Shown piece by piece: positions 2,507 through 40,474 of a stretch of 64,000 nucleotides of DNA. The position numbers and the translations under genes were made by a program. Positions within the stretch are counted from its first letter, which is position 1; the number at the start of each line of letters is the position of its first letter. The DNA is taken from the IMG/VR virus record IMGVR_UViG_3300045256_000188, positions 1 to 64,000 of that record; one strand, 5' to 3'. The notes beneath the pieces were generated by a model. The model saw only the letters and a program-made list of their open reading frames with translations. It was not told the origin of the DNA and ran no database searches. This DNA is from a virus.

Positions 2507-2848
2507 ATGACCCCTGACATGGTGAACGAACTCTTCGAATTCGTGGGCGGGCTGTTTCTCTGCCTGAACTGCTGGCGAATCCACAAGGATAAGCAGCTAA
2601 AGGGTGTGAGCTTCTGGTCCGTCTTCTTCTTTACGTCCTGGAACCTGTTCTTCTACCCCTCCATGGAGGCGTACTACAGCTTCTACGGAGGAATCCTGAT
2701 CGCCCTCGCCAACACCGTATGGATCGGGTTGGTGATATATTATAAAGTTCACAAACCTGCTTCGCCCAAAGATTGGGTAAAGCTGGCTCCGAGAGCACCG
2801 GAGCCAATCGTCGTGTGCCCTCGGTCCCTACTGGTGTACTATGCATAA
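2507..2848 (+). CDS. Small multi-span membrane protein
   Basis: 113 residues with an AAGGA site 7 bases before the ATG. Three hydrophobic stretches are visible: about 8-24, about 36-50 and about 60-80 (the last beginning with the segment SFYGGILIALANTVWIG). A basic loop follows. Family not recognised. A holin role is possible for a small phage membrane protein, but no lysis gene lies next to it, so this is not claimed. The stop overlaps the start of the glycosyltransferase gene by 8 bases, implying coupled translation. Confidence 0.7.
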   Translation: MTPDMVNELFEFVGGLFLCLNCWRIHKDKQLKGVSFWSVFFFTSWNLFFYPSMEAYYSFYGGILIALANTVWIGLVIYYKVHKPASPKDWVKLAPRAPEPIVVCPRSLLVYYA

Positions 2849-5384
2849 CGATTTCTGCACAGTAGTGGTCGTGGCGGAAGAAGGGGCAAAGCAGCTAGAA
2901 TTCTTCCTCCAGAACTACCGAAAGTGCTATCCCAAGGCTCCACTCCACGTCATTAGCGATGGCGTGAATGACCCAGAATATTCCAAGCTCTGCAAGAAGT
3001 ACAACGCTGACTACACCCTCGGCCGCTACTACAAGCGGATCGAATGTGGCGGTCTATGGTGGAAGCGGACCCTGGAAGTCGGGCTCAAGTATGGCAAGAA
3101 GTGGATCTTGAAGGTAGACCCCGACACCAAGTTCTGGCGGCCATTCAAAACGGCTCCCAAGCACCCGGTATCCGGCACCCACAACAACATCGGCAACCCC
3201 CACGAATACATCCAGGGCGGATGTCAGGCTATCCGCAAGGACATCGCCAAGAAAATCCTCGACTCCGGCATCCTGGCCAGCGACGAACTAACCAAGCACT
3301 GGAACTTCTGCCCAGATAAGAAGTTCCTGAACTCCTGGCTGCCCACCGGCTACTTCACCACCGATTTCTCCCTCGTCTTCATCCTCCGCAAGCTGGGGAT
3401 CGAGTTCGGTGATTGGACCGACGTCGGCTGTCAGTGGCGAGTCGCTCCACCCAACTTCGACGGCACCTACGCCGTTACCCACCCACACAAGGTCGCCGAC
3501 CACAAGCCGGTCGGGGTGACGGACAAGACGCCCATCACCATCATCACCACCTGCAAGGGCCGCAAGCACCATCTGGAGCAGACACTCCCGAAGTGGCTCA
3601 AAGAAAAGAACGTCAACGTCGTGGTCGTCGATTACAACTGCCCGCAGAACGTCGGCAATTGGGTAGAGAAGACCTACCCAGGAGTGCGGGTTGCTCGCGT
3701 CCACAATGAGCGGAAATTCCATCTCGCCAAAGCCCGAAACGTCGGTGCCAAGTACGCCCCAGCCGGCTGGTGGGTGTTCATGGATGCCGACATGATCGTG
3801 AAACCGGGTATCATGGACGAGATCCGCAAGGTACTCACCAAGGGCTATTATTACGTCGCCAGTCCACTCAAATGGGGGATGTGCGGTACTGTGGTGGTCC
3901 ACAGCGAGGACTACAAGAAGGCCGGTGGCTACGATGAGATCCTGTCGGGTTGGGGTGCTGAGGATCTCGACTTCTACGCTCGTCTCCGCCAGATGAACGT
4001 TCGCCCGGCGTTCTGGAATGGAACCTACGCTGAGAACATCCCGCATTCCGACGAGGAGCGTGTGAAGTTCTACGATAAGGCCAAGGAAGTGGCCCTAGTC
4101 CAGAACGGCAAGTACGTGCGAGCCAAGAACAAGCTTATGGTCAAGAACTGGAAGCTCTTGACCCTAGATGAGCGGAAGGCTCTGTGGGCTGATATCGTGG
4201 GCGATAATCAACCGAAAGCGGCACCGCCATCGAAGGGGAAGGCGAACCCAAAAACTGGCACCCACAAGTGCAAGTTCGAGATCAAGTTCGAGTGTGGCAA
4301 CTGCGGTCACAAGAGCACCTGCCGAGCGACGGTAGTATGCACTAACGAAGACTGTCCGAATAACCACTACCCGTGCGGACCTGGGGTGGTATCGAAGCCT
4401 GAGGACAAGTCGGGCGTTCCGGCCGACTTCTTCGGGAAGATCGACAAGAAGGGGGATGATCGAGCGGCGAGCTCTACCTCTTTCGAAACCGACGATAACC
4501 GGGGCGGTTTCCCCGGCGGCCACCACCACTCTCACGGTGGCCATCACTTCGCAGGCGGTGGACACCACGCAGGTGGGTCGCTGTCCCGCGGCAGCGGTGG
4601 CCACACCGGGGCGGTGGTGGGCACTGGTGGTTTTTACATCCCTCCACCCATTGTGAGGAAGCCGATGACGAACATCAGCGTCGTGAACCACTCGACCATC
4701 CACCTTGGTATGAGCCTGGAAGAACTGTGCCGGGTGGGGATGGACTACCTAGAACTCTTGGCCCAGTTCTGGCCAGGAGTCCAGGCGAATCTGATCCCGA
4801 CCAAGGTGATCCTGCCGAACACCCACGCCCTGGTCATCATGGACGATCCAGACCAGAACCAGCAACTGCTTGGTTATCGCGATCAAACCCCGGACGGGTT
4901 CCCACTGGCGAAGTGCTTCGCCAAGGCGGAGATGGTCGAAGGAGTACCGGTGACCGTGACCTTCACCCACGAACTCGGCGAGTTCCGGGTGGACCCGAAC
5001 AACAGCAAGAGTGCGGTCAACAGCGATGGGGTTACCCACGCCGTTGAGATTTGCGATCCGGTCGAAGACGACTGGTTCCAGCACAACGGTGTTCAGGTGG
5101 CGAACTTCGTGCTCCCGTCGTGGTACGAGTCGTTCCACAAGACGGGTTCCACCAAGTTCGACTACATGGGCCTTCTGTCCCGGCCATTCTCGATGGCTCC
5201 GGGTGGGTTCACCACGGTCCGGTCTTCGGCCGGGCAGTGGATGCAGGTGCACGGGAGTCACCCGAAGCTGGAAGATCTGGCCGGGAAGGACCAGCGGGAA
5301 TGGCGGGGTGATCTGCGGAAAAACCAGCATCACGCTTCGACGCGGCACGCTCACAACAGCTACCTACGGACTGGCCGCAAGTAA
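2841..5384 (+). CDS. Two-domain glycosyltransferase with zinc-like cluster and His-rich linker
   Basis: 847 residues. Residues 1-220 resemble a GT-A fold transferase with a DPD metal-binding motif at 93-95. A second GT-A unit (about 228-420) has a DAD-type motif near 314 and the GWGAEDLDF signature near 371 typical of family-2/7C galactosyltransferases. A segment at about 477-515 contains CxxC-type cysteine pairs like a zinc ribbon. A Gly/His-rich stretch (about 559-590) links to a C-terminal domain of roughly 230 residues that I do not recognise. It probably transfers two sugars to a virion or cell-envelope acceptor (inference). Two different catalytic units plus a metal-rich linker in one protein is unusual. 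Confidence 0.8.
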   Translation: MHNDFCTVVVVAEEGAKQLEFFLQNYRKCYPKAPLHVISDGVNDPEYSKLCKKYNADYTLGRYYKRIECGGLWWKRTLEVGLKYGKKWILKVDPDTKFWRPFKTAPKHPVSGTHNNIGNPHEYIQGGCQAIRKDIAKKILDSGILASDELTKHWNFCPDKKFLNSWLPTGYFTTDFSLVFILRKLGIEFGDWTDVGCQWRVAPPNFDGTYAVTHPHKVADHKPVGVTDKTPITIITTCKGRKHHLEQTLPKWLKEKNVNVVVVDYNCPQNVGNWVEKTYPGVRVARVHNERKFHLAKARNVGAKYAPAGWWVFMDADMIVKPGIMDEIRKVLTKGYYYVASPLKWGMCGTVVVHSEDYKKAGGYDEILSGWGAEDLDFYARLRQMNVRPAFWNGTYAENIPHSDEERVKFYDKAKEVALVQNGKYVRAKNKLMVKNWKLLTLDERKALWADIVGDNQPKAAPPSKGKANPKTGTHKCKFEIKFECGNCGHKSTCRATVVCTNEDCPNNHYPCGPGVVSKPEDKSGVPADFFGKIDKKGDDRAASSTSFETDDNRGGFPGGHHHSHGGHHFAGGGHHAGGSLSRGSGGHTGAVVGTGGFYIPPPIVRKPMTNISVVNHSTIHLGMSLEELCRVGMDYLELLAQFWPGVQANLIPTKVILPNTHALVIMDDPDQNQQLLGYRDQTPDGFPLAKCFAKAEMVEGVPVTVTFTHELGEFRVDPNNSKSAVNSDGVTHAVEICDPVEDDWFQHNGVQVANFVLPSWYESFHKTGSTKFDYMGLLSRPFSMAPGGFTTVRSSAGQWMQVHGSHPKLEDLAGKDQREWRGDLRKNQHHASTRHAHNSYLRTGRK

Positions 5385-13354: not shown

Positions 13355-15148
13355 TCAGCGACTTCTGGATGGCGTGCCTGACAGTGGCCTGGCGGCGCTT
13401 TGGTATCGCCTCTCTAGCACAAACCTCAATTTTCCCGTCCCAAAAACCTTCTTGTAGCCGAACTTGTCGGCATAGGCTGCTTCTTTCATCGACATTTTCA
13501 CGGCGCGCTCGTAGAGCGTCTTTTTGTGCATCACCCAGCCGTGCTCGTCTACGTACCAGTAATCTGGGCGAATTACCTTGTCCTGCTTGAAATTGAGCGC
13601 TTTGTAGACCGCCCCGTCGTGATTGAATGTAGTGTCACAGTACGAGATGACAAACTTGTACTTCTTATCTAACTGCTTCAGGCACCTACTAACGAACCAG
13701 CTGGCGAAATTGTGCTTCTGATACCGTGGATGGATACACAGCCGACTCAATTCGACAGTCTCAGCCAATGTGAACTCGCCAGTGTCTACGTTCTGGCGCA
13801 CCGGAGGCGAAAAAACGCATACCGCGATGAGCTTATCTTCTAGATATGCCCCGTGGGCTATGCCGCCGCGTCCGGCGTTAGCCAAGTAGTGATACTTGGA
13901 CAACAACAACCTATAATCTACGGCGTCAGCTTTCCTGATTACAATGTCCTTGAAGGAGAACGATGCTATTTCCAACTCCGTTAGCCCAAGCCAATATTTC
14001 AAAGTCTCGACTACTTTCTCTTTGCAACCGAACTCGTGCTCCCACAGGTATTTCAGTTCGTGGCTACCGCCGCAATACCTGGCCACGTACATCGCTTTGG
14101 CCTTATCCACACGCACAGCTCGCGCCAGGGAATGCCAATAATCGCCTTGGCACTCAATCACCAATAATGGCTTGTTGGCCCGTGGGATTACACAGTCGAA
14201 ATTATATGGACCGATGGTGCACTCCGGATCAGCCGCCCTGTCGGCGTACTCCCGGAAGTATCGTATCCCCAGATCGTCCAGAATACTGTAAAGAGTCGTC
14301 TGTAGGCCGGAGACGCGCGGCTGTGCTTCCCGTGCTTTCGCCATACGTTCTCGGAATTCGTCACTCTCCCAAACTTTCCTAATCCTCTCTGCATTAGCTT
14401 CTCGCAATCCTGGGTCTGACCATACAATCTTCATCAGGTTTGAGATCTTCTGTCTCTTGAGCGGATCGGCCCATATCCTCTGCTGGATAGCCGACATCTC
14501 TGCTTTCTTCTCATCGGTCCATACTAAAACCTGGACCGCTCGCATAGCTTCGACGCGTTCGGGGCTGTCCCAGTAATCCCGGAGAATGTCGGCCATTTTC
14601 TCACGGAGCGTAATATCAGACCACACAATCTTCTGAATAGTCGCTTGTTTGCGGCGGTACTCCGGCTGAGCCCAGAGGTCCTTCGAGCCCTCGGACAGCT
14701 TCCGTCGGAGTTCCGGCGTTACCCGCGCCTCCGATGACGCAGCAGCAGCGCTCCGCTTATCGTCCGTCCACGCTTTCTTCATGCGTTCCGATTGAAGAGC
14801 CGCAAAGTCCTCTGGGCCACTTATGCCGTGCTTTTTGCAGAGACGCTCCAAGGCTGATACTGAACCGCCGACAACTGCGACGATCTCTTGCAATGACTTG
14901 GTAGGACGGAGTTGCCTGACCTGTTCTATGGTCTCTGGAGTATCTAGGTTCGATTTGTTGCATAAGGCTGCGGTCTCAGCCACACTCCGTTTCAGCCCCA
15001 AGTGCACCAGTAGCTTTCCTATGGTCCTAGCTGGCTTCCTGTAAATTGCCCCAATCTCCTTAGCAGTTTTCCCTTCCGAAAATAGCCTAATAATATCCTG
15101 CTTCTGGGTGTCACTGAACTGCTGATGAACTGAGATAGGCGCTGGCAT
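13355..15148 (-). CDS. EDxHD/Vsr-like nuclease fused to a Mom-like DNA-modification domain
   Basis: 597 residues. The start at 15148 (MPAPISVHQ) has an AAAGGA site; an earlier start at 15199 would lie inside a terminator hairpin. Order: helix-turn-helix region (about 10-110); several repeats of an arginine/tryptophan-rich DNA-binding unit (about 120-285); a nuclease core with YNFDCVIP and LLVIECQGDYWH, the arrangement of Vsr/EDxHD homing endonucleases; then about 190 residues with ELSRLCIHP and SYCDTTFNHDGAVYKALNF, resembling the GNAT-like Mom protein of phage Mu, which modifies adenine in DNA. It probably cleaves specific sites and may modify DNA. Located between fossil copies of capsid and methyltransferase genes. 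Confidence 0.7.
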   Translation of the reverse strand: MPAPISVHQQFSDTQKQDIIRLFSEGKTAKEIGAIYRKPARTIGKLLVHLGLKRSVAETAALCNKSNLDTPETIEQVRQLRPTKSLQEIVAVVGGSVSALERLCKKHGISGPEDFAALQSERMKKAWTDDKRSAAAASSEARVTPELRRKLSEGSKDLWAQPEYRRKQATIQKIVWSDITLREKMADILRDYWDSPERVEAMRAVQVLVWTDEKKAEMSAIQQRIWADPLKRQKISNLMKIVWSDPGLREANAERIRKVWESDEFRERMAKAREAQPRVSGLQTTLYSILDDLGIRYFREYADRAADPECTIGPYNFDCVIPRANKPLLVIECQGDYWHSLARAVRVDKAKAMYVARYCGGSHELKYLWEHEFGCKEKVVETLKYWLGLTELEIASFSFKDIVIRKADAVDYRLLLSKYHYLANAGRGGIAHGAYLEDKLIAVCVFSPPVRQNVDTGEFTLAETVELSRLCIHPRYQKHNFASWFVSRCLKQLDKKYKFVISYCDTTFNHDGAVYKALNFKQDKVIRPDYWYVDEHGWVMHKKTLYERAVKMSMKEAAYADKFGYKKVFGTGKLRFVLERRYQSAARPLSGTPSRSR

Positions 15149-15177: not shown

Positions 15178-15219
15178 GACGCGCCCCAGAAAGAAACAAT
15201 AGTCTTTCCGGGACGCGTC
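15178..15219 (-). terminator. Strong hairpin, terminator of the fossil capsid copy
   Basis: 17-bp stem (two wobble pairs on the RNA) with an 8-base loop. It lies just 3' of the capsid-gene remnant, the same relative place as the hairpin after the intact capsid gene, and upstream of the nuclease-Mom start. Confidence 0.7.
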
Positions 15220-15233
15220 AGCATGAGACTGTT

Positions 15234-15304
15234 TTAGAGGTTGCTGACAGTGATTACGCTGTCAGGTCCAGCACGGTCGGCGTGCTGAGCAGCGGGACCA
15301 TCTC
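15234..15304 (-). pseudogene. Fossil 3' end of a second major capsid protein gene
   Basis: Two short frames match the C-terminus of the intact capsid protein: PLLSTPTVLD (intact: same residues) and VITVSNL followed by stop (intact: VVTVSNL and stop). About 27 codons between them are deleted and the frame shifts. The nucleotide sequence is diverged, so the event is old. Placed immediately 3' of the LAGLIDADG-methyltransferase gene. Confidence 0.75.
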
Positions 15305-15321
15305 AGATATTAAGACCTAAC

Positions 15322-17034
15322 TTATCTTCCAGCACAAATTTCCACAAACCACTCATTCGGTGCTTTGTGTCGGGCGCGGCTCACTAAAGGTAGCGCATTG
15401 ATGATAAAATCAGCAGTCAAAGCATTCTTCATCGGTTTGTCCACGTGCAGTACAACCCGCTTCGCATGAGTTTTCGCCTTTTGAACTAGAGGACGCAAAA
15501 ACTCAGCATACCAAGTCTCAAACTTCCCATACTCAACCCCATCCAAATAATCCTCCTTGTTGTGGAAAGGCGGAGATGTAAGCACGAAATCCACATCGGA
15601 CCATATCACATCTTGCCATTTCAAGTTGTGAAGCTGGCAAGAAGAACCCACAAATTCTTTGATCTTCACTAGGCCAGGATAGGAAATACCAGGATCGGTA
15701 GCCTCATAATCGCAACCCGCAATTTTCGCAGCTAAAAGTCGATGCCCCCAACCAGCACAAGGGTCGAACCATTTCCCTTGAAGCCCAAAATGTTTGAGCG
15801 CAGCAATAATCACCGGGACACTCAACATGGAGGCCATGGTCAAACCAGCAAACCGCAGTTCTCGAATTAGACGGGCTGGACTTAAAGTCTTCCCAGGGGT
15901 AATGAATGCTTTGACCGCTCGTGCTACCGTCTTCGGAGCCTTAGCAAGTTCAGCTACAGAGACACCACCCTGACGGACGTGATAAGCAAGTGGTTGGTGA
16001 TGTAAGACTAGCTGATTCCCAGGAGCCAATCCTGTAGTAATTTGATTTTCACCAAGATACTGACCAATATCGATCGATTGACAAGCTAACCAATCACTAT
16101 CGCAATCGAATTTCTTTGATTGCCAACCACTACTGATGATAGTAGACACAAATTCGTTGATAATATCATGCCTGTCGGTCCTTGCCATAATCTCTGCTGC
16201 GGTCAACTTAAATTCGAAATCGTGGATATTGTTCCAAACGAAAGGTCGCAGACCTTGAAATTCGAGCCAGCGAGTGTATTTCCGTTCCAACCGAACCGAA
16301 TTATCGGAGTAGATAAAATTCCCAAACTTCGCGACATTGCCGCGATTGGCCCAGCGAAGCTCGTAAACCGATTTTCGCGGCTTCACTTGTGTAAATGGCC
16401 CACCAACCGCCGCAATACGACAATTGATCTTATTCAGCGCCCCATCGAATTTGCAGACAATATTACTGTACCATCGACGTTTACGACGGTGTTTCCTCTT
16501 CTGGCTACTGATGCACCCATCTCCGTCAAAATAGCCGCGAACAAAATGATGCAAAAGAAAGTCCGGCACTGTGTTGATTATTTCGAAGTTGATGCCATTT
16601 TTATAATCGAGCCAACCTAATTGCAGGAGAATCCTGGTCATTATCACATCATTGAATACCATCACCTTCCTAGGATGATTGTCTCTCAGATCGTCAAAGA
16701 ACTCACCTTTATAACCCAAGAAATCGGCCAACAATCGCAGATGCCCTTCATCCCGCTTCTGTAAAGAAACCCTGATAGTGCGGTATGTGCCCGCTGATTT
16801 GGCGATGCAACCATCGGCCAACATGAAACCTAACCAGTAAGCTTTTTCCGGAACATCAATCGTATCGAAAATGTGACTGTTAAGAACGAATGAACGCTCA
16901 CCTTTTGACTGACCTTTCAACCCAGCTTTTTTCATATATCGACGAACGGTAGTAACACTACAGTTTAACCGCTCAGCGATAGTTTTCTGTGGAATCTTCT
17001 GACGAGCCAATTTAATGATGTCGTCGGATAGCAT
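15322..17034 (-). CDS. LAGLIDADG homing endonuclease fused to a DNA methyltransferase
   Basis: 571 residues from ATG 17034; a TTG at 17085 is possible but lies in a hairpin loop. An N-terminal helix-turn-helix (KTIAERLNCSVTTVRRYMKK) is followed by a two-motif LAGLIDADG nuclease, with WLGFMLADGC and FVRGYFDGDGC both retaining the catalytic Asp. From about residue 310 a SAM-dependent DNA methyltransferase follows, with DPCAGWGHRLLAA (motif I) and TSPPFHNKEDY (motif IV, N4/N6-type SPPF). No intein splice blocks are present, so this is a free-standing fusion, not an intein. Visibly more AT-rich than the capsid gene upstream, consistent with transfer. It may cut unmodified genomes and protect its own. 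Confidence 0.8.
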   Translation of the reverse strand: MLSDDIIKLARQKIPQKTIAERLNCSVTTVRRYMKKAGLKGQSKGERSFVLNSHIFDTIDVPEKAYWLGFMLADGCIAKSAGTYRTIRVSLQKRDEGHLRLLADFLGYKGEFFDDLRDNHPRKVMVFNDVIMTRILLQLGWLDYKNGINFEIINTVPDFLLHHFVRGYFDGDGCISSQKRKHRRKRRWYSNIVCKFDGALNKINCRIAAVGGPFTQVKPRKSVYELRWANRGNVAKFGNFIYSDNSVRLERKYTRWLEFQGLRPFVWNNIHDFEFKLTAAEIMARTDRHDIINEFVSTIISSGWQSKKFDCDSDWLACQSIDIGQYLGENQITTGLAPGNQLVLHHQPLAYHVRQGGVSVAELAKAPKTVARAVKAFITPGKTLSPARLIRELRFAGLTMASMLSVPVIIAALKHFGLQGKWFDPCAGWGHRLLAAKIAGCDYEATDPGISYPGLVKIKEFVGSSCQLHNLKWQDVIWSDVDFVLTSPPFHNKEDYLDGVEYGKFETWYAEFLRPLVQKAKTHAKRVVLHVDKPMKNALTADFIINALPLVSRARHKAPNEWFVEICAGR

Positions 17035-17036
17035 CT

Positions 17037-17108
17037 TTAGTCCGTAAAAGTGTTCAGCACCGTTTAAATACGTTTGATTCGGCAACCATGAACACTTTTA
17101 CGGACTAA
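17037..17108 (-). promoter_or_regulatory. 20-bp perfect inverted repeat at the endonuclease start
   Basis: Arms 17037-17056 and 17089-17108 are perfect reverse complements around 32 bases. In the transcript the stem ends 2 bases before the ATG at 17034 and includes the only candidate Shine-Dalgarno bases (GGA). A stem that hides the initiation region would keep translation low on some transcripts, as is known for phage T4 I-TevI. It could instead be a nuclease or protein recognition site. Confidence 0.6.
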
Positions 17109-17152: not shown

Positions 17153-17180
17153 ACAAGAGGGGCCGTCAGGCCCCTCTTGT
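17153..17180 (-). terminator. Terminator after major capsid gene
   Basis: Perfect 12-bp stem with a GTCA loop, 18 bp beyond the capsid stop codon, followed on the minus strand by TTGTATTTAT. A good intrinsic terminator. Confidence 0.8.
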
Positions 17181-17198: not shown

Positions 17199-18845
17199 TT
17201 ACAGGTTGCTGACTGTTACCACGCCATAGTACAGACCACCATCTTCGATCAGCTTCTTCCCATAGCGGGTCATAATACCCTTGTTCGGCGTGAAGGAGTT
17301 CGGGTCGAGTACGGTAGGAGTACTCAGGAGGGGGATATAGGGAGCATAGAAGTAGCCCGCGTCGAGCACCGAGTTCCCCTTGAAGCCCATCAGAATCTTG
17401 CAGTTCGGGAACAGCGGGTCCTTGTAGATCTTCATCTTGCCCTGGATCGAGCCGATGTTCATGATCCCGATGTCCACGCCCTCGGTGGTGAAGGCGTCGG
17501 AGGCACGGAAGTCGTTCAACTGCTCGAACTTGGACGCGATGTCCGCCGACATCACCATCCAGTTGGCCGGGCCGCGGAGGGTGGTCCGGTGGATGATGTT
17601 CGCCACTTCCAGGACCTTGTACATCAGGGCGATGTTGCGGTCCGTGAAGTTGACGCTCGCCCCGGCAGCGGTGGCGAAGTTGTGGTCGGCTCGGATCGCC
17701 GCAGCGATGATGAGGTCGTTGATGATCTCACGATCGATCTCGGCCACCATCTCGTCGGCCATCAGGTCGGTCAGGGTGGACTCAGCGTCGATGTTGTGCA
17801 CCGACTTGAGGTCCTGAGCGGCTTCCAGCGACCAGGAGGTCTTCAGCTTGCGGGTGATCGCAGCGACCGAATCACTGTCGATGCTCAGGGTCACTTCCGG
17901 CTGGAAGGGGTTGGCTTCCAGGTCGTACTCGTAGTTGACGCGGGCCACGGCCCCGACCGGGAAGGACCCAGCGGACAGGGTGACCTGGACGGCACCGGTC
18001 GAGTGGTTGAAGGTAGTCGCACCGGGAGTGCTGACGTCCACCGTCAGGGTGTCGGTGAACTCGGTGCAGTCGCCGACCAACACGACGTCAGGGTTGCCGT
18101 CGCTGTCGAAGCTCACCCGGAGGCACGGCGTGGCGTCGTCGCAGTTCGGGCTGGCGTCGGCGGCGGAGGCGAAAACCTCGACCACGACGGTGCCGGCCAG
18201 GACCGGACGGTGAGCCAGGGTCGCGGACACCACCGAGTTACCGGTGATCGTCGCGTCCTCGCCCCGGACTTCCTGCGAGGAGTAGTATGGGTCGAGAGCC
18301 CAGCCGTTCTGACGAGCGAAGCTCTGGGCGGTGTTCTGCCGCATGATCTGCGTGCCGGCGACCGTCTGGCCCTTCGTCAGAGCGTAGCGGTACCGGATGT
18401 AGAAGATCAGGCTGGCCGGCTGGCTCATCGGCTGGACGCCGACGAGGTTGTCCGCGATCAGCTTCGGGTACGACTTCCGGATCAGCGGCAGGGCGAACCG
18501 GGTGAAGTCGGCGATGTTCGCGGTGGTGGTCTGGTCTTCGAACAGCAGCGACCGCTTCTCCGGGTTCCAGGCGTTGAACTGGTTCTCCAGGATGGAGGCC
18601 ATCAGCCCGAACTTTTGGGGGCCGACTTCGCGGCACTTACTCAGAACCGGCGACCACTTGCGGACGAGTTGGTTCTTCTTCGACTCATGGATGACGGCGG
18701 CCTTGTGCAGGTCCGTCTCCTCGGTCAGCATACGACTGCCACGATTGACCCCTTCAGCGAGGTGCCGGCGAGCAGCGGGGGCAGCGGCCCGTGCTGCGGG
18801 AGCAGCCGGACGAGCAGCGAACCGTTGCGTGCGAGAAGGAAGCAT
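17199..18845 (-). CDS. Major capsid protein, T4 gp23 family
   Basis: 548 residues with an AGGAGA site before the ATG. After an Ala/Arg-rich N-terminus comes the conserved gp23-type segment FTRFALPLIRKSYPKLIADN followed by VGVQPMSQPASLIFYIRYRYA, and later SWSLEAAQDL, DLMADEMVAEID and a C-terminal region with GVVTVSNL. This is the HK97-fold shell protein that assembles around the gp22-like scaffold and is processed by the gp21-like protease encoded upstream. An insertion at about 200-290 with Cys and Asp/Thr-rich sequence may be a surface domain. No intein. A fossil of a second copy lies at 15234-15304. Confidence 0.92.
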   Translation of the reverse strand: MLPSRTQRFAARPAAPAARAAAPAARRHLAEGVNRGSRMLTEETDLHKAAVIHESKKNQLVRKWSPVLSKCREVGPQKFGLMASILENQFNAWNPEKRSLLFEDQTTTANIADFTRFALPLIRKSYPKLIADNLVGVQPMSQPASLIFYIRYRYALTKGQTVAGTQIMRQNTAQSFARQNGWALDPYYSSQEVRGEDATITGNSVVSATLAHRPVLAGTVVVEVFASAADASPNCDDATPCLRVSFDSDGNPDVVLVGDCTEFTDTLTVDVSTPGATTFNHSTGAVQVTLSAGSFPVGAVARVNYEYDLEANPFQPEVTLSIDSDSVAAITRKLKTSWSLEAAQDLKSVHNIDAESTLTDLMADEMVAEIDREIINDLIIAAAIRADHNFATAAGASVNFTDRNIALMYKVLEVANIIHRTTLRGPANWMVMSADIASKFEQLNDFRASDAFTTEGVDIGIMNIGSIQGKMKIYKDPLFPNCKILMGFKGNSVLDAGYFYAPYIPLLSTPTVLDPNSFTPNKGIMTRYGKKLIEDGGLYYGVVTVSNL

Positions 18846-26036: not shown

Positions 26037-29000
26037 TTACAAGCCACTCACCGCCACCGGTAAGTCGGACTCCGTTATCTCTTCCGAGTCAGACTCCTCA
26101 GGCAGATCATGACCCACGGTGATGACGTTGTAGACTTCCCGAATTACCTCATCCCGGATGTCCTTAGGTACTGACCACTCGACGAGAAGCCCAGGGTCCT
26201 CGCTTGGATCGTACAACAACGGAACCTCAAGCCCCTCGGACATCACGATCTGGTTGGGCGTAGGTTTGCCCCTACACAGCCCATCCAACTCCTTGCTCTC
26301 CAGCACGGCCTGGAAACCGCTGGTAAACTCACGGTCCTCCGCAAACAGAGGCTTACCCAACCGATCAGCCCACTTGCGGACCAAGGACATCGCCTTGTTG
26401 CGTTGACCACTCTTCTTATACTCAGCCAGGAGACGCTTATCAGCCTCCCAGTCGAAGCCCGGCAGCTTCGATTCAGGGATAGCGTTGGGGTCGGTCATCG
26501 CCGCAGCTTCCGCCCCCGCCGCAGCAGGGTCAGGAGGAGCCCCACCAGCAGCAGGATCACCACCAGCAGCAGGATCACCACCAGCCGCAGGATCAGCGGG
26601 AACATCCAAGCCACCACCCCCACCACCCCCACCACCCCCACCACCCCCACCAGCAGCATCCCCACCGCCACTAACTGCCTCAGCGGTCATCTCCTTAAGT
26701 TCTTCGATCTCGTCCGGAGACAGATCGGTGAAGTTGGTGACAATCCACTCCTTCGGGAACCAGCCCAGAGCTTGCAGGTCGGTCATCACACCCACCCGCG
26801 TCTGCCACGTCTCGATCCGGTACAATTCCTCCATCGCAGAAGTAGCGGTCAGAGCGATCTCGAATCCCTTCAGATCCTCGACCGGATAACCACGCAAAGC
26901 GAGGTGGATGATGGCCACTTTGGTCAGACCGGTAGCCACCTCCCGTTGAACCCACTGCACCGACTTGGCGAACTCCGAATGCGACTGGCTGAGCGACTTC
27001 TCGCTCGCTTCCCCACTGCCCTCCCCGATACCCACACGAGAGAAGGGGATCTTCATGGGGGCGATCATCTTCTTCTTGAAGTATTCGATATCAGCGATCT
27101 TGTCCACGTTCTCGCCACCCGGCAGCACATCCACGTCCGGACCAGTGCCGTCAGGACGACGCGGCAAGAAGAAATCGTCTTCTTGGATAAGCGGCGAGTA
27201 CCGCTCGTCGAAACTCCCTGTCGAAGGGTTGTAGAACCGCTGCCGCTTGAAGTTGCGGGCGATCATCTGCATATATTCAGGCACTTCCTTCGGCGGAATC
27301 AAGCCAACCGGGATAGTGAACTTCCGCTTTTCAGGCGCGCGGGTATTCGCTTGCACATTACCATTGGAGATGAAATTATGGACCTCATCCTCAACAGTAA
27401 TATCATAGACTAGATCATCACCTACCTCCTCTACTCCCAAGATGGCCTCGGAAGCGTTCGAATGCCTCTCACCAGCCCTCACGATATAATCAGGATCTGG
27501 CAATTGTCTCTTGGTAAAGTAGAGAGACCAACCAACGGTGTCCGGCATAACTCTGCCGGGCTCTATCTCGTGACCGCCACTTCGTTCATGCTTCCGCACT
27601 AGGCCAACATCCCAGCCCAGGCGATGACAAAGTTCCTTGAGGTCCCTCAGCAGCAGCTCGTTGCAGCAATCAACCTCGCAAGACTCGGTATTACCGCCCT
27701 CGAACAGTCGGCGATGGCCGTCAGCATCAATATAGCCGTCAATGAACGCTTCCTGCACCGAGCGAGGCGACTGGAACACCCACGCCGGAATCCGCTTGTT
27801 AGCCGCCCCAGAAATGAAACCATTGTCAAGCATGAAATCATGCAACGGCTTTGAATTAATCGAAAACGAACCGAGCCTCCCACCAGAATCACCGGAAAAA
27901 GTAAGCTGGCCAACAAACGACGCAAACAACTTAGCATAATAATCATTGGTGTGGGCATCAGCACCAATAGCAAACCCAACCTGTCTGGTTACGCTGCCAG
28001 GACGATTCCGATGTGGCCTCGCCGACACGAAGCCGTCACCGACCATGAACCCGAACCACCTAGCAAAGTCTTCGGTAGCCACTTCAGGAATTGTGAAGGC
28101 TCTGCTGGCTGATTCGCGACCGCCAGCGGCCAACGACGACCGATCGAGTGGCACATACTCAGTGTGTTTCACCTGCGGCAGCAAGAAGCGATGATGGCTA
28201 GCGATGCCGTTACGCTTAACGATCAAGTCTTTGACATCAACGTATTCCAAACGAGCTGGGCGGTCCTTGTCTCGTTTATTCGAATAGGACGTCTCGACAA
28301 GGATCGGGTGGGTAGCATTACAAAAGATCTCCCGATGTTGTGAGTAGACGCGATAGATGACGTCCCGCCCATTGCATTGCCAGTCAATTACTTTAGTGAC
28401 TTTGGGCTGGCCGTCCTTGAAGCAGTAAACCTCGTCGCCGACCTTGAGATCCTTAATGGGGGTGTGGCCGGTAGGCGTCCACACCAGAGTATCACCCCTA
28501 AGGCAGATCCTATAGATAAGAGCAGCATCCTCCATGAGACGTAACTGCTTAAACGCCTTGCGGCCACCATCAAGAATTGAGTTGTGAACGACAACACCAT
28601 TGGCGTTGAAATTGTGGAAGCAAGAGGCGACTTGGATGTCACCGACCTCCAGACGACCGGCACTCTCAGCGCGGACGACATCCTCGGCCATATACGAGTT
28701 GGCGTCATCATACTCCGGGTCATGGACTACGATCTTGCTACCTGGAACGACGTATTTAGCCGGCACATACCGGCGGAATAACTTGCCGCCAGCCCCGCCC
28801 ATAACAGCCAAGATCGGGTGATCTTCACTGACCTCTATAGTCCGATACTTCGTGGTTATCCTCAACCCCGGCTTATAACCGCTGCAAACGGTCTGCCGGA
28901 CTGTCGTGGCCCTGGGTGTGAGCCCATCAAACGAGTAAACGACGTCGCCGCGTGTGAGATCCCGTAGTTGCTTGTACCCACCCGGTACCAGGATGGGTGT

Positions 29001-30797
29001 ACGCATATCGCAACACCGCCCATACGGGTGATAGATGTTCTCGAAGGACGTCAGCCGAAGGTGCATCACCTGCCAGGGGTGCAGGAACACCGGACGCGGC
29101 CAGAGGGCATCCATGTAGAAGAAACCGATCAGGTCACCGTACCGCGTCTCGATCCGGGTGAAGTTGTAGACGTTCATGAACTTCAGTGATGCCACTGCAG
29201 TTCGATGTTGGTCAAGAATCACTTCGAAGGGAAGATCGCCGTACTTGCACAGGTAGCGAACCGACGGCCTGCAGTAGGTATCCCACTGTAGGGTATTGAA
29301 GAATAGTTCCTCAAGCTCCTTCTTCAGGCGGCGGTTTCGAGCACGGATGATGAGGGTGTGCTTGCGTTCCGGGTCAACCAGGCTGTTGTGAACGATAACC
29401 CAGGACGATTCAGTGCCGGCCGCAAAACAGTGATATCCTGGAACTTCGATGTCGTAAACTGTCTCAGAAACGCCGGCTGGCTCGACGGCGACAACCTTGT
29501 GATTTCCGAACGACTTCTGCAAATAACGGGATTCGCAGACGGTCGGCCGGCAGTCGTCGCAGTAAGGACTGTAGGCCGCGCCATTCTTGAGAAACCGGCT
29601 CGCCGGTTTGACGTCATCACAAGCTAAGCACAGACGTTCGGATACAGGGACGTAGGCGGAACGCTTATTAGCGTTACGTCTATCGCGATACGCCGTTTCA
29701 CTCTTGCGGCGCTGATGGTAATCACGAAGATATTCCTGACGACACTGCCGACAGACCCACGCCACGCCAGTAATCCGTTCGTTACAGCACGAGCAACGGT
29801 GGTGAGCGTCACGGAAAGCGGCCCACGTCAGATCGTTGGCCGCCAGGACCCGGCGCAAGACCCGCTCCCCGATATCACAGGCCCCACAGACCCCGGCGAT
29901 GGTGACCGGACCAGACCAATCGGCCATCGCATGGAGTATCTCGTCCAGGGTGATATCGTTGAAACTGTGGTTCTCAGCGCCATACTTCTTGTGGATGATA
30001 TCATGCTGAGTCTTGGTCATCCCTACCAAATTAGACGGAGAATTATTTAGACTGTCAAAATCCTTGTGGTGAACGACCTGCGGGCTATCGTCGTTGAGGT
30101 GGTGATAGACCCACCGGTGAGTGCTGGTGAAATTCTTGCCGTTGAAGAAATACTCATAGGCGGTCGCCGTCGGGTATGGTTTCTCGTCGAATAGGGCGTA
30201 ACCGTCTTTGGCGCGATATTTCTTCTTCCGGTATAGGGGTTTGAGGCTGTCGCCGGGGCGCAGATCACCCGCCTGACGATAGGTCCCGGCCTTAGTCATA
30301 AAAAGGTGGTCCGAGGTACACTTAATACTAGATCCATCATCAAGAACGACGCGGACGATCGGGACATTAATCCCGCTGACACGAGCCCCACGCGCCAACG
30401 CGGGGACGTATGAACCAGTCTTGGGGTCGACTGAATACACCCAGAATTCGTTATCCACTCCTCTATTGGCCAGCTCGGCGATAGTGGGACAGGAACCGTC
30501 TAGAAGTGGGATACGCGTATCCCCGGTCAAGCAGGCTTCATCAGCATAAAGATCCAATGCCAGGGACACTTCCCCGGTCTGATCCATCTGCTCGTAGTCC
30601 TTATACCGCTCCAAACGGTTGATCTGAAGGTTGGTCTGGTCAAGGATCGCCGCCTGATTGTTGAAATCAAGGAACTCGCCGCCAGCCGTCAGCCGGTCTA
30701 GATTGGATTGGTCCTGGAAGACCCGTTCGAAGCTGTAAATCCGACCCTGCCGGGCTAGGGCTCGAATGCGGTCAAAGACCAACCAGTTGCTTGGCAT
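26037..30797 (-). CDS. Portal vertex protein, T4 gp20-like, with three inteins
   Basis: 1586 residues as translated, 671 after removal of 383-, 145- and 387-residue inteins. A GGGGAG site precedes the ATG. Extein landmarks of gp20: SLALDLYADEA, TLIIRARNRRLKKELEELFF, YHPYGR joined to SILDGGRKAFKQLRL, then YRI joined to TRAPEKRKFTIPVG, and FLPRRPDGTGPDVDVLPGG. A Gly/Ala/Pro-rich insert lies near the C-terminus. The dodecameric portal nucleates the prohead and conducts DNA. Intein sites lie at DEA|S, YGR|S and YRI|T, all in conserved stretches, so splicing is essential. Upstream neighbour on this strand is the terminase. Confidence 0.93.
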   Translation of the reverse strand: MPSNWLVFDRIRALARQGRIYSFERVFQDQSNLDRLTAGGEFLDFNNQAAILDQTNLQINRLERYKDYEQMDQTGEVSLALDLYADEACLTGDTRIPLLDGSCPTIAELANRGVDNEFWVYSVDPKTGSYVPALARGARVSGINVPIVRVVLDDGSSIKCTSDHLFMTKAGTYRQAGDLRPGDSLKPLYRKKKYRAKDGYALFDEKPYPTATAYEYFFNGKNFTSTHRWVYHHLNDDSPQVVHHKDFDSLNNSPSNLVGMTKTQHDIIHKKYGAENHSFNDITLDEILHAMADWSGPVTIAGVCGACDIGERVLRRVLAANDLTWAAFRDAHHRCSCCNERITGVAWVCRQCRQEYLRDYHQRRKSETAYRDRRNANKRSAYVPVSERLCLACDDVKPASRFLKNGAAYSPYCDDCRPTVCESRYLQKSFGNHKVVAVEPAGVSETVYDIEVPGYHCFAAGTESSWVIVHNSLVDPERKHTLIIRARNRRLKKELEELFFNTLQWDTYCRPSVRYLCKYGDLPFEVILDQHRTAVASLKFMNVYNFTRIETRYGDLIGFFYMDALWPRPVFLHPWQVMHLRLTSFENIYHPYGRCCDMRTPILVPGGYKQLRDLTRGDVVYSFDGLTPRATTVRQTVCSGYKPGLRITTKYRTIEVSEDHPILAVMGGAGGKLFRRYVPAKYVVPGSKIVVHDPEYDDANSYMAEDVVRAESAGRLEVGDIQVASCFHNFNANGVVVHNSILDGGRKAFKQLRLMEDAALIYRICLRGDTLVWTPTGHTPIKDLKVGDEVYCFKDGQPKVTKVIDWQCNGRDVIYRVYSQHREIFCNATHPILVETSYSNKRDKDRPARLEYVDVKDLIVKRNGIASHHRFLLPQVKHTEYVPLDRSSLAAGGRESASRAFTIPEVATEDFARWFGFMVGDGFVSARPHRNRPGSVTRQVGFAIGADAHTNDYYAKLFASFVGQLTFSGDSGGRLGSFSINSKPLHDFMLDNGFISGAANKRIPAWVFQSPRSVQEAFIDGYIDADGHRRLFEGGNTESCEVDCCNELLLRDLKELCHRLGWDVGLVRKHERSGGHEIEPGRVMPDTVGWSLYFTKRQLPDPDYIVRAGERHSNASEAILGVEEVGDDLVYDITVEDEVHNFISNGNVQANTRAPEKRKFTIPVGLIPPKEVPEYMQMIARNFKRQRFYNPSTGSFDERYSPLIQEDDFFLPRRPDGTGPDVDVLPGGENVDKIADIEYFKKKMIAPMKIPFSRVGIGEGSGEASEKSLSQSHSEFAKSVQWVQREVATGLTKVAIIHLALRGYPVEDLKGFEIALTATSAMEELYRIETWQTRVGVMTDLQALGWFPKEWIVTNFTDLSPDEIEELKEMTAEAVSGGGDAAGGGGGGGGGGGGGGLDVPADPAAGGDPAAGGDPAAGGAPPDPAAAGAEAAAMTDPNAIPESKLPGFDWEADKRLLAEYKKSGQRNKAMSLVRKWADRLGKPLFAEDREFTSGFQAVLESKELDGLCRGKPTPNQIVMSEGLEVPLLYDPSEDPGLLVEWSVPKDIRDEVIREVYNVITVGHDLPEESDSEEITESDLPVAVSGL
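27345..28505 (-). mobile_element. Portal intein 3 (387 aa, LAGLIDADG)
   Basis: Cys1 in CLRGDTLVWTPTG; motifs WFGFMVGDGFV and FIDGYIDADGH both keep the catalytic Asp, so the endonuclease may be active. Ends NVQAN before Thr: the penultimate His is Ala, which usually slows C-terminal cleavage. Confidence 0.92.
28581..29015 (-). mobile_element. Portal intein 2, mini-intein (145 aa)
   Basis: Begins with two cysteines (CCDMRTPILVPGG); alignment with the other inteins makes the first Cys residue 1. Block B (SEDHPIL) and C-terminal NFNANGVVVHN before Ser are present. Only splicing blocks are left; there is no endonuclease domain. Confidence 0.9.
29385..30533 (-). mobile_element. Portal intein 1 (383 aa, HNH endonuclease)
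   Basis: Cys1 in CLTGDTRIPLLDG, end SSWVIVHN before Ser. Instead of LAGLIDADG it carries an HNH core (VVHHKDFDSLNNSPSNL) followed by two zinc-like Cys clusters (CSCCNE, CRQC; CLACDD, CDDC), unlike every other intein in the window. Confidence 0.9.
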
Positions 30798-30880: not shown

Positions 30881-31465
30881 ATGCGTCGTCGCGTACTCCC
30901 AGGAGCGATCGGGGCCGGACTTCTCGGCGGTCTGCTGTGGTGGCTCACCGGCAGCCAACCGCCTCCGCCCGCTCCACAACCGCCACCAAACCCGGCTCCC
31001 ACACCGGCCCCAACCAACACCATCTCCCAATTACTCGACGCCCACAATCGCTACCGTGCCCAGCACAACGTCCCCGCCTTAGCCCTCAACGCCAAGCTCA
31101 CCGCTGCCGCCCAGAAGCATGCACGGTGGATGGCCAACAACCGAAGAATGAGCCACACCGGAGTCGGCGGCTCATCCTTCGCCGACCGCATCAGGGCGGA
31201 GGGCTACGACTTCCGGATGGGAGGAGAGAACATCGCGGCTGGCTATAAGTCCGTCGATGCTGCCATGACCGGCTGGATGAACAGTCCAGGCCACCGGGCC
31301 AACATCCTAAACCCAAACTATAAGGAGGTCGGGCTGGGGGTCGTCAACAACTACTGGTGTACCGTATTCGCTACCCCATTCACCAGCACCAACGCCGTCA
31401 CCAACTCGATCATCGAACTCCCCGGTGGCATCCGAGCCGGTGACCTCGACGAATTCGGGCCTTAA
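30881..31465 (+). CDS. CAP/SCP-domain protein with N-terminal membrane anchor
   Basis: 194 residues: a hydrophobic N-terminal segment (about 8-22), a Pro-rich spacer, and a CAP domain like bacterial YkwD, with AHNRYRAQHNVPAL, MSHTG, GENIAAG and WMNSPGHRANIL. CAP proteins are secreted; phage and bacterial roles are poorly known, though envelope binding is plausible. It lies on the opposite strand between terminase and portal genes and its TAA stop overlaps the terminase TAA in a shared TTAA. A GAGG site precedes the ATG. Probably an acquired accessory gene with its own promoter. Confidence 0.85.
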   Translation: MRRRVLPGAIGAGLLGGLLWWLTGSQPPPPAPQPPPNPAPTPAPTNTISQLLDAHNRYRAQHNVPALALNAKLTAAAQKHARWMANNRRMSHTGVGGSSFADRIRAEGYDFRMGGENIAAGYKSVDAAMTGWMNSPGHRANILNPNYKEVGLGVVNNYWCTVFATPFTSTNAVTNSIIELPGGIRAGDLDEFGP

Positions 31466-39485: not shown

Positions 39486-40474
39486 GACTCGTCCTCGTTG
39501 TCGTCCGCGCTACGTCGCCATCCGGCCCGCTGCCCATCAGCACCACGGTTCAGATTCGAGTCAGTCAGTTCCATACTCCGCAATTTCGTCAACTGGATGA
39601 AGTTGGTGACCGTAGCCCGGGATAGCCCGGTGCGGTCTACCAGCTTACCAATGATCCCATCGTGCGGCCGGTCGTCGTTCTCGGCAATCCAGGCGATTGC
39701 TTCGATGATCTGCAGGTGATCGTTGTGGTACTTCCACAATTCGCGGGCTTCGTTGAGGAACCTCTCCATCACCCCCGACACCGGCCGGCTCTTGGTCCCA
39801 AGGTGGTTAACGTAAGAGCCGGAGTTCTTGCGGTCCCGGCCCTCTTTCTTGATATAGGCCAAGATTACCGTTCGGGCGATCTGGCTCCACATGTTGAAGA
39901 CTTTGGATATGCCGCGGAACAGTACCGTCTCAGAACCACCATATCTGCCCTGCTTGGGCTCGACGCCCGGTGATGCATTCAGGAGGGCTTGGCAATGTGG
40001 GCAGCGACGGCCGCGGTGGAGACTGATAACCTCCTCAATCGTCTTGATACCATACTCCTTGTCGCCCGGTTGGTAGAGCAGGGAGTCGGAGGGGCGTTCT
40101 GGGTTGAAGCAAACCCGACAGTGTGGGCGTGCTCGATACTTGTAGAGGGTCCGCTCGATTTGAACCCAGGCAGTCTGGAGAAGGTCACCGAAAGCGGACT
40201 CTTCTTGGCCTGGGTAGATGGTGTGGAGGCCCTGCTTGCGGATTATTTGGCGGATGAGTTCGGTGGCGTGACTCATGATCTGGTCACGCAGAACTACCTT
40301 CGTGCAACCCGTCCAAATGTATAGCGTTAGCTGCCATTCGACTTCTTCATTAATGAAATACAATTTACGTTGCGGCGTCACCACCGGTGGCGGGCACGGG
40401 GGGACTTGGCTGCTTGGAGGCTGGGACAAGCAGCTTTCGTCGGATTTTGAATCTACTTTTAACGAGTTCTGCAC
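39482..40474 (-). CDS. Putative late-transcription sigma factor, T4 gp55-like
   Basis: 330 residues. A region-2-like core is split in two: GLHTIYPGQEE with LLQTAWVQIERTLYKY, and later SKVFNMWSQIARTVILAYIK. Between them lie about 70 residues with two CxxC pairs (CRVC, CPHC), like a zinc ribbon insert. The C-terminal part contains a helix-turn-helix (VDRTGLSRATVTNFIQLTKL). In T4-type phages gp55 with the sliding clamp activates late promoters. A GTG start with GGGAG is assumed, giving a 110-bp overlap with the helicase gene; the conserved part could begin later. Family assignment is by pattern recognition only. Confidence 0.6.
   Translation of the reverse strand: MQNSLKVDSKSDESCLSQPPSSQVPPCPPPVVTPQRKLYFINEEVEWQLTLYIWTGCTKVVLRDQIMSHATELIRQIIRKQGLHTIYPGQEESAFGDLLQTAWVQIERTLYKYRARPHCRVCFNPERPSDSLLYQPGDKEYGIKTIEEVISLHRGRRCPHCQALLNASPGVEPKQGRYGGSETVLFRGISKVFNMWSQIARTVILAYIKKEGRDRKNSGSYVNHLGTKSRPVSGVMERFLNEARELWKYHNDHLQIIEAIAWIAENDDRPHDGIIGKLVDRTGLSRATVTNFIQLTKLRSMELTDSNLNRGADGQRAGWRRSADDNEDES

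What the first reader, a model, noticed from the sequence alone, without database searches (positions are those of the whole stretch)
15322..17034. LAGLIDADG homing endonuclease fused to a DNA methyltransferase
Seen: helix-turn-helix, two intact LAGLIDADG motifs, then methyltransferase motifs I and IV in one free-standing ORF beside the capsid gene. A site-specific nuclease joined to a DNA methylase could spread by homing while protecting modified copies, or exclude rival phages, like a mobile restriction-modification unit. AT-richer than its neighbours.
Basis: partly seen in the sequence, partly recalled or inferred. Interest (0 to 1): 0.72.

Follow-up and report, generated by a model that had tools for sequence, protein, structure and literature searches.

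The report
Homing nuclease fused to DNA methylase
A selfish DNA-cutting gene next to a phage's capsid gene carries a DNA-methylating enzyme in the same protein, and related phages repeat the combination with other cutters and another DNA-modifying enzyme, which suggests, but does not prove, that these elements mark their own DNA.

Summary
In detail: one ORF (15322-17034, minus strand, 570 aa) encodes an HTH, a two-motif LAGLIDADG nuclease and an AdoMet methyltransferase, modelled with confidence (mean pLDDT 92.8). The setting is more unusual than reported. In phages with a related capsid gene, the stretch just 3' of that gene is an insertion hotspot: 39 of 60 loci hold one of seven nuclease or modification profiles there, against 1 of 64 upstream. 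The same methyltransferase family is fused there to LAGLIDADG, HNH and two PD-(D/E)XK-like nucleases. The next window ORF joins another nuclease to a Mom-type DNA modifier. A relic of a capsid-gene 3' end lies just behind the fusion; a second lineage shows the same. A 20-bp hairpin precedes the start codon, as in T4 homing genes. I conclude: a free-standing homing endonuclease of a modular class that carries its own modifying domain. That this domain protects the element's DNA from its nuclease is inferred. Anti-restriction cargo is the main rival, supported by elements that lost the nuclease but kept the methylase. Mom-nuclease fusions are already published as predicted restriction-modification units; methyltransferase fusions to homing nucleases were not found in my searches.

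The parts
15322..17034 (-). ORF of the finding, 570 aa: HTH + LAGLIDADG nuclease + methyltransferase
16914..17034 (-). N-terminal helix-turn-helix, about residues 1-40
   Evidence: Pfam HTH_11 8e-6 over residues 8-36; helices 2-11, 16-22, 27-36 in the model
16252..16866 (-). two-repeat LAGLIDADG nuclease, about residues 57-261
   Evidence: Z 18.5 to PI-PfuI, 15.6 to I-DmoI, 15.8 to I-Tsp061I; phrog_4645 4.2e-43
15325..16251 (-). methyltransferase part, about residues 262-570 (Rossmann core about 416-570)
   Evidence: family profile match 5.8e-102 at 15325-16251 (the profile includes this sequence); Z 15.8 TrmN, 15.6 Trm11; motifs DPCAGWG and TSPPF
17037..17108 (-). 20-bp perfect inverted repeat (arms 17037-17056 and 17089-17108) ending just before the ATG; motif CGTAAAAGTGTTCA, similar motif in related elements
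   Evidence: RNA z -5.4, 0 of 200 shuffles as stable
17153..17180 (-). terminator-like hairpin between capsid gene and fusion ORF
17199..18845 (-). major capsid protein gene (Gp23-like), the neighbour at whose 3' end the element sits
   Evidence: Pfam Gp23 1.2e-78
15234..15297 (-). relic of a capsid-gene 3' end (codes PLLSTPTVLD, then an out-of-frame ITVSNL-stop; internal deletion)
   Evidence: 41 aligned columns at 95% to L117's capsid gene, E 4.4e-13; best of 200 shuffles 29.2 bits against 62.6; window's own capsid gene shares only 31 of those 41 nt with L117
15178..15219 (-). terminator-like hairpin behind the relic
13355..15148 (-). neighbouring ORF (ATG at 15148, open to a TTG at 15199): HTH + PD-(D/E)XK-type nuclease (Vsr/MTES-like) + Mom-type DNA modification domain
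   Evidence: Pfam Mom 3.8e-17, MTES_1575 0.0016 (below cut-off); phrog_1384 1.1e-25, phrog_559 1e-22; phage Mu Mom structure E 8.6e-5

Best explanation
The ORF is a free-standing homing endonuclease gene inserted at the 3' end of the capsid gene; its product is a bifunctional protein. The HTH and LAGLIDADG parts bind and cut a site, most likely in or near the capsid gene, of a co-infecting phage genome that lacks the element. Break repair then copies the element, with some flanking capsid sequence, into the cut genome. The fused methyltransferase modifies DNA, probably an exocyclic amino group of cytosine or adenine, and by being tethered to the same DNA-binding parts it marks genomes that carry the element, so that the nuclease spares them. 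Graded: architecture shown; mobility strongly supported by comparison; target site, base modified and protective role inferred. The protein belongs to a modular class in which different nucleases are joined to one of two modification domains (this methyltransferase or Mom).
For: Architecture and fold. Hotspot: in IMG/VR loci found only by the capsid gene, 39 of 60 with 1.5 kb downstream have one of seven nuclease/modification profiles starting within 1.5 kb, against 1 of 64 in the 1.5 kb upstream. After clustering capsid genes at 98%, of 44 clusters with at least 1,400 bp downstream 16 have the methyltransferase, 2 Mom, 11 a nuclease alone, 15 none of the profiles. Nuclease exchange: one supported set of methyltransferases (13 of 95 rows, SH-aLRT 95) holds LAGLIDADG (6), HNH (3) and TnsA-like (3) fusions plus one without a nuclease; another (7 rows, 97) holds LAGLIDADG_2 (4) and Vsr-like (3). 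Insertion scars: capsid 3'-end relics behind the fusion in the window and in L179/L180; reversed-sequence control 0 of 73. Hairpin before the start codon in 4 of 6 capsid-adjacent LAGLIDADG fusions examined; hairpins before homing genes are described in T4-like phages (passages of PMC2988022). Both halves kept: in L041/L044/L051 dN/dS 0.16-0.18 (nuclease side) and 0.07-0.10 (methyltransferase side); the two halves diverge together in seven relatives, r 0.77, 50 of 5040 permutations as high. A second modification enzyme in the same design: 20 of 24 methyltransferase ORFs at capsid loci carry a nuclease profile in the same ORF, and 10 of 11 Mom ORFs fetched from two related phages do.
Against: Nothing shows that methylation blocks the nuclease. 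Nuclease exchange within one methyltransferase lineage is hard to square with a methyltransferase tuned to one nuclease's site, unless specificity comes from tethering. Related elements have lost the nuclease and kept the methyltransferase (L176/L178, L166, L188), so the methyltransferase has value by itself. HNH nucleases without the domain sit at the same site (10 of 44 clusters), so protection is not required for homing. Best structural matches of the methyltransferase are mostly RNA methyltransferases. Relics were seen in 3 of 73 loci (2 lineages) only. 15 of 44 clusters have nothing recognisable there.
Confidence: 0.55

Rival explanations
1. Anti-restriction cargo. The methyltransferase (like Mom) shields phage DNA from host restriction; the homing nuclease is only its vehicle. 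Fusion keeps the two together but their targets are unrelated.
For: Elements with the nuclease lost and the methyltransferase motifs kept. The same domain occurs without a nuclease in 55 of 100 rows and with ParB-like N-termini (by eye) in 5. In lactococcal 936 phages orphan methyltransferases that protect against restriction sit in the same slot as HNH homing genes (passages of PMC4190342). 8 Mom copies in one 341-kb phage would suit broad protection.
Against: A cargo gene need not share a polypeptide with the nuclease, yet at capsid loci 20 of 24 methyltransferase ORFs do, with several nuclease types. Nuclease and methyltransferase diverge together in 7 relatives.
Confidence: 0.25
2. Single-chain restriction-modification for superinfection exclusion, not homing. 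The nuclease destroys unmodified host or rival phage DNA, as proposed for Mom-nuclease fusions of jumbo phages.
For: Published prediction for Mom fusions (passages of PMC7824862). Architecture resembles fused R-M enzymes (passages of PMC3039593).
Against: LAGLIDADG, HNH/EndoVII, Vsr-like and TnsA-like nucleases with HTH and NUMOD3 matches are the homing toolkit (recalled). Hotspot, relics and multicopy dispersal indicate mobility.
Confidence: 0.12
3. The C-terminal enzyme methylates RNA or protein.
For: Best structural matches are TrmN, Trm11, Trm14 and METTL5 (Z about 15).
Against: Relatives match N6_N4_Mtase; the alignment profile finds a putative modification methylase and a DNA cytosine-N4 methyltransferase; DNA enzymes of the beta order are permuted relative to this protein, which lowers their structural score (inference). 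Repeated partnership with DNA nucleases, and Mom as the alternative partner.
Confidence: 0.05
4. A chance read-through fusion or decaying chimera without joint function.
For: Pfam does not recognise the methyltransferase half of this copy.
Against: Relatives with the same architecture at 38-51% identity, purifying selection on both halves in other members, intact motifs in 98 of 100 rows, the other two cut by contig ends.
Confidence: 0.03

Closest known systems
Free-standing homing endonucleases of T4-like phages (Seg, Mob; segD lies between genes 23 and 24)
   Same: Gene next to the capsid gene, patchy among relatives, hairpin before the start codon (PMC2988022 passages)
   Different: No DNA-modifying domain is mentioned for those ('methyl' and 'modification' occur 0 times in the text); segD is GIY-YIG
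Mom-REase fusions of jumbo phages (PMC7824862)
   Same: Nuclease joined to a DNA modification enzyme in one chain; the neighbouring window ORF is of this kind
   Different: Different modification enzyme; described as restriction-modification, with no occurrence of the word homing in the main text held
Fused restriction-modification enzymes, type IIC (e.g. engineered RM.Eco29kI, PMC3039593)
   Same: Cleavage and methylation in one polypeptide
   Different: Here the nuclease is of homing type and the element is phage-borne and apparently mobile; common specificity untested
936-type lactococcal phages with orphan methyltransferases and HNH homing genes in one slot (PMC4190342)
   Same: Methyltransferase and homing nuclease share an insertion slot near packaging genes
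   Different: Separate genes, not fused
ShiLan insertion in a phage methylase (PMC11855218)
   Same: Homing nuclease associated with a phage methylase
   Different: There an HNH gene is inserted out of frame inside a methylase; here two domains are fused in frame

Membership tests
LAGLIDADG homing endonuclease | two LAGLIDADG motifs with acidic residues | tested here: met
   sequence
LAGLIDADG homing endonuclease | LAGLIDADG fold with two repeats | tested here: met
   residues 60-261 on PI-PfuI, Z 18.5, rmsd 2.4, 181 aligned; model pLDDT 92.8
LAGLIDADG homing endonuclease | cuts a long specific site | not testable with these tools
   needs biochemistry
Free-standing (intronless) homing element | not within an intron or intein | tested here: met
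   no intein domain in this ORF at E<=1; no Rfam family reaches its cut-off in the window
Free-standing (intronless) homing element | patchy presence at a conserved site among relatives | tested here: met
Free-standing (intronless) homing element | transfer with co-conversion of flanking sequence | tested here: inconclusive
   capsid 3'-end relics in 2 lineages; no clear recombination breakpoint along the capsid gene
N4/N6 amino DNA methyltransferase | motif I and (S/T)PP(Y/F) motif IV on a Rossmann fold | tested here: met
N4/N6 amino DNA methyltransferase | match to a DNA methylase profile | tested here: inconclusive
   not for the window copy; 15 of 28 long ORFs of the family match N6_N4_Mtase
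N4/N6 amino DNA methyltransferase | DNA as substrate | not testable with these tools
   structural neighbours are mostly RNA enzymes
Single-chain restriction-modification enzyme | nuclease and methyltransferase in one polypeptide | tested here: met
Single-chain restriction-modification enzyme | both activities share one recognition site; methylation blocks cleavage | not testable with these tools
   needs biochemistry
Intein | splicing blocks around the endonuclease | tested here: not met
   no Intein_splicing or Hint match in this ORF, whereas three other window ORFs do match
Mom-nuclease fusion (neighbour 13355-15148) | Mom domain plus REase-fold nuclease | tested here: inconclusive
   Mom met: Pfam 3.8e-17, Mu Mom structure. 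Nuclease fold: PHROGs of endonucleases with Mom match, but Pfam MTES_1575 only 0.0016, below its cut-off, and the model is of middling confidence

The most novel reading that the evidence does not exclude
Self-marking homing endonucleases: a large modular class of phage selfish elements in which almost any homing nuclease fold is wired to a DNA-modifying domain (this methyltransferase or Mom), so that carrier genomes are immune by an epigenetic mark rather than by a disrupted target. Homing and restriction of rival phages would then be one process, and conserved essential genes such as the capsid gene could be targeted without being recoded.
Probability: 0.35. Interest if true: 0.88.

Novelty: new variant of a known kind. 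Interest (0 to 1): 0.72.

Why it matters
Homing elements are usually thought to protect their own copy by splitting or recoding the target (recalled). A class that carries its own DNA-marking enzyme would link homing endonucleases to restriction-modification, explain why Mom and this methyltransferase family so often follow nucleases in these phages, and give a direct test of how R-M enzymes and homing enzymes interconvert. The hotspot offers many natural nuclease-modifier combinations at one locus.

Tried and rejected
Own-capsid 3' end as blastn/tblastn query against the downstream stretch of each locus found no relic in the window at E<=0.001; it gave 3 of 73 loci with weak protein hits elsewhere (L129/L130 about 5.8 kb downstream, L189 on the other strand), which I did not pursue. 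The relic was seen by eye and confirmed only against relatives' capsid genes; a protein-level search for relics found none.

Co-conversion tract along the capsid gene: no clear breakpoint or donor.

dN/dS was interpretable only for L041/L044/L051 and, on the nuclease side, L170/L194 (0.19); the other pairs were saturated or identical, and none are close kin of the window ORF. The cut between halves was my approximation.

A search for long inverted repeats before all nuclease ORFs was too crude: it excluded the first 60 nt after the capsid stop and so missed L179/L180 and the imperfect L145 repeat; perfect repeats of 10 nt or more before 6 ORFs (L123, L147, L148, L159, L175, L189) are not interpreted, except L159.

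Long-branch warnings apply to the tree, which is a quick search with SH-aLRT only; five short rows were left out of it (L055, L082, L098, L168, L188). The nuclease labels for the VEIKP, zinc-finger PD-(D/E)XK, duplicated PD-(D/E)XK and L069 groups, and the ParB label, are mine by eye; only LAGLIDADG, Vsr, TnsA-like, HNH/EndoVII and Mom come from library matches.

Literature: no papers; listings. No paper in these listings reported, by title or start of abstract, a LAGLIDADG or HNH homing nuclease fused to a DNA methyltransferase; the library lacks most subscription journals and preprints. I read the abstract and one section of PMC11855218 and only passages of PMC2988022, PMC7824862, PMC13096335, PMC4190342, PMC3039593 and PMC1564403. 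PMC1564403 describes a GIY-YIG nuclease with a methyltransferase domain in Lactobacillales, in the Slx-1 group.

Full report
What is there. The window is 64 kb of an 83,425-base IMG/VR virus record with T4-like structural genes: Gp23-like capsid (Pfam 1.2e-78), prohead protease and Gp20-like portal. The ORF of the finding runs from an ATG at 17034 to 15322 on the minus strand, 570 codons. Residues 4-255 match PHROG 4645 'endonuclease' (4.2e-43) and carry an HTH and two LAGLIDADG motifs with their acidic residues. The C-terminal 300 residues have no Pfam match at E<=1. They are nonetheless a methyltransferase: tblastn found relatives in 18 phage records, of which I opened five, including separate genes of about 330 aa in Herelleviridae and a Vibrio phage; 4 of 6 aligned members match N6_N4_Mtase; a profile of the six finds a putative modification methylase (2zie, 6.8e-7) and a DNA cytosine-N4 methyltransferase (8s9n, 2.6e-5) in the PDB, each through a part of the domain, as expected if the motif order is permuted. 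AlphaFold with 30 sequences gave mean pLDDT 92.8 and pTM 0.70. Residues 60-261 superpose on PI-PfuI (Z 18.5), 58-250 on I-DmoI (Z 15.6); residues 325-569 on TrmN (Z 15.8) and related RNA methyltransferases. So fold and motifs are clear, the substrate is not.

No record in the phage collection covered 80% of the protein (0 of 161 matching records). The 29 IMG/VR loci found with the whole protein match only its nuclease part, and a profile search of all ORFs listed no methyltransferase domain in them.

Same methyltransferase, other nucleases. In two uncultured phage genomes the domain is fused to other N-termini: LAGLIDADG-like repeats with an HTH in L002 (1229 aa) and zinc-finger-like plus PD-(D/E)XK-like segments in L006 (644 aa) (labels partly by eye). 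Among 28 long ORFs of the family scanned, Pfam found N6_N4_Mtase in 15, LAGLIDADG_2 in 10 (best 1.7e-38), Vsr in 2 and LAGLIDADG_3 in 2. Five others carry ParB-like N-termini, by eye. In bacterial and archaeal contigs 30 loci were found; 3 of 30 looked like nuclease fusions by eye (L196, L198, L201), all in metagenome-assembled genomes.

A hotspot 3' of the capsid gene. I then searched IMG/VR with the capsid protein alone, which is blind to what lies beside it: 143 confirmed, best 80 kept, 74-90% identical. Of 60 loci with 1.5 kb downstream, 39 have an ORF that matches at least one of seven profiles (this methyltransferase, LAGLIDADG, HNH, TnsA-like, 'VEIKP' PD-(D/E)XK-like, the Mom-linked nuclease, Mom) and starts within 1.5 kb of the capsid stop; of 64 loci with 1.5 kb upstream, 1 has one there. 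Six of the seven profiles were built from ORFs at these loci, so the count describes the hotspot rather than tests an independent prediction; the methyltransferase profile was built before. After clustering at 98% capsid identity, 44 clusters have at least 1,400 bp: methyltransferase 16, Mom 2, nuclease alone 11, none 15. The 16 divide by partner: LAGLIDADG 5 (one behind an HNH gene), 'VEIKP' 4, HNH 3, TnsA-like 2, no nuclease profile in the ORF 2. Relatives of the window fusion at this site: L159 (51% identical), L180 and L145 (47%), L182 (38%), L177 (28%).

Nuclease exchange. In a tree of 95 methyltransferase domains, one set of 13 rows (SH-aLRT 95) holds 6 LAGLIDADG, 3 HNH, 3 TnsA-like fusions and one without nuclease; a set of 7 (97) holds 4 LAGLIDADG_2 and 3 Vsr-like. 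The search was short, with long-branch warnings. Within the LAGLIDADG_3 group nuclease and methyltransferase diverge together (21 pairs, r 0.77; 50 of 5040 permutations as high).

Scars of insertion. Between the fusion ORF and the next ORF lies 15297-15234, which resembles a capsid-gene 3' end: 41 aligned columns at 95% to L117's capsid gene (E 4.4e-13; best of 200 shuffles 29.2 bits against 62.6), followed by a piece like the capsid's last codons and stop. The window's own capsid gene shares 31 of those 41 nt with L117, so the relic is not a recent copy of it. A second case lies behind the fusion of L179/L180 (GGLYYGVVTV). In all 3 of 73 loci, two lineages, against 0 of 73 reversed sequences. 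The simplest reading is that the element entered the capsid gene's 3' end, brought its own version of that end, and left the old end behind.

Regulation. A perfect 20-bp inverted repeat ends just before the ATG (17037-17056/17089-17108; z -5.4). L180 (27 bp), L159 and L145 have one in the same place with a similar core; L177 and L182 do not. Stable hairpins before homing genes are described for T4-like phages, and segD lies next to gene 23 (passages of PMC2988022).

The neighbour. ORF 13355-15148 has HTH-like repeats, a Vsr/MTES-like nuclease and a Mom domain (model pLDDT only 68.6). Mom-REase fusions are published for jumbo phages as predicted restriction-modification units (passages of PMC7824862). 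In 12 records (the window's own and 11 related) 15 Mom matches were found in 5, all in open frames of 460-620 aa, 8 of them in one 341-kb phage, one with a stop inside. Of the 11 in two of those records, 10 carry the nuclease profile in the same ORF. That many copies looks more like a mobile family than like one R-M system (inference).

What the modification domain does. Methyltransferase motifs are intact in 98 of 100 rows, the other two cut by contig ends (rows were chosen by a profile, so this is partly circular). Where measurable, selection is purifying on both halves. For self-marking: fusion in one chain with many nuclease types, and a second modifier used the same way. Against: nuclease partners change within one methyltransferase lineage; some elements lost the nuclease and kept the methyltransferase (L176/L178, L166, L188); HNH elements at the same site do without it. 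I therefore put self-marking somewhat above anti-restriction cargo, and neither is shown.

Noticed in passing
window 40365-44714 (-) and 41331-42311 (+): A helicase ORF contains two intein-like inserts. The second (about residues 745-1170, boundaries by eye) has its middle occupied by an ORF on the opposite strand that matches DUF7487 (1.9e-20) and homing endonuclease PHROG 3339 (4e-7), while the intein frame stays open. An antisense endonuclease inside an intein would be unusual; one distant relative of it was found.
   Followed up: partly
window 31462-37134 (-): Terminase large subunit ORF of 1890 aa with several intein/LAGLIDADG matches (Intein_splicing 4.5e-34, LAGLIDADG_3 5e-47 in 4 stretches).
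   Followed up: no
window 26037-30797 (-): Portal (Gp20) ORF of 1586 aa with two intein-like inserts, one with HNH and one with LAGLIDADG matches.
   Followed up: no
L151, L152, L155, L159, L179, L180, ORF starts about 4.5-6.7 kb before the capsid stop: Further Mom-nuclease fusions sit upstream of the capsid gene in several relatives.
   Followed up: no
L166, L176, L178, L182, just 3' of the capsid gene: An HNH gene lies between the capsid gene and a methyltransferase element, as if newer elements land nearest the capsid gene.
   Followed up: partly
L045, L052, L064, L066, L088: The same methyltransferase domain follows a ParB-like N-terminal part, by eye.
   Followed up: no
L129 and L130, about 5.8 kb downstream of the capsid stop: A 22-aa stretch 64% identical to part of the capsid C-terminus (E about 1e-8).
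   Followed up: no
window 2841-5384 (+): 847-aa ORF with a family 2 glycosyltransferase domain (1.3e-9).
   Followed up: no
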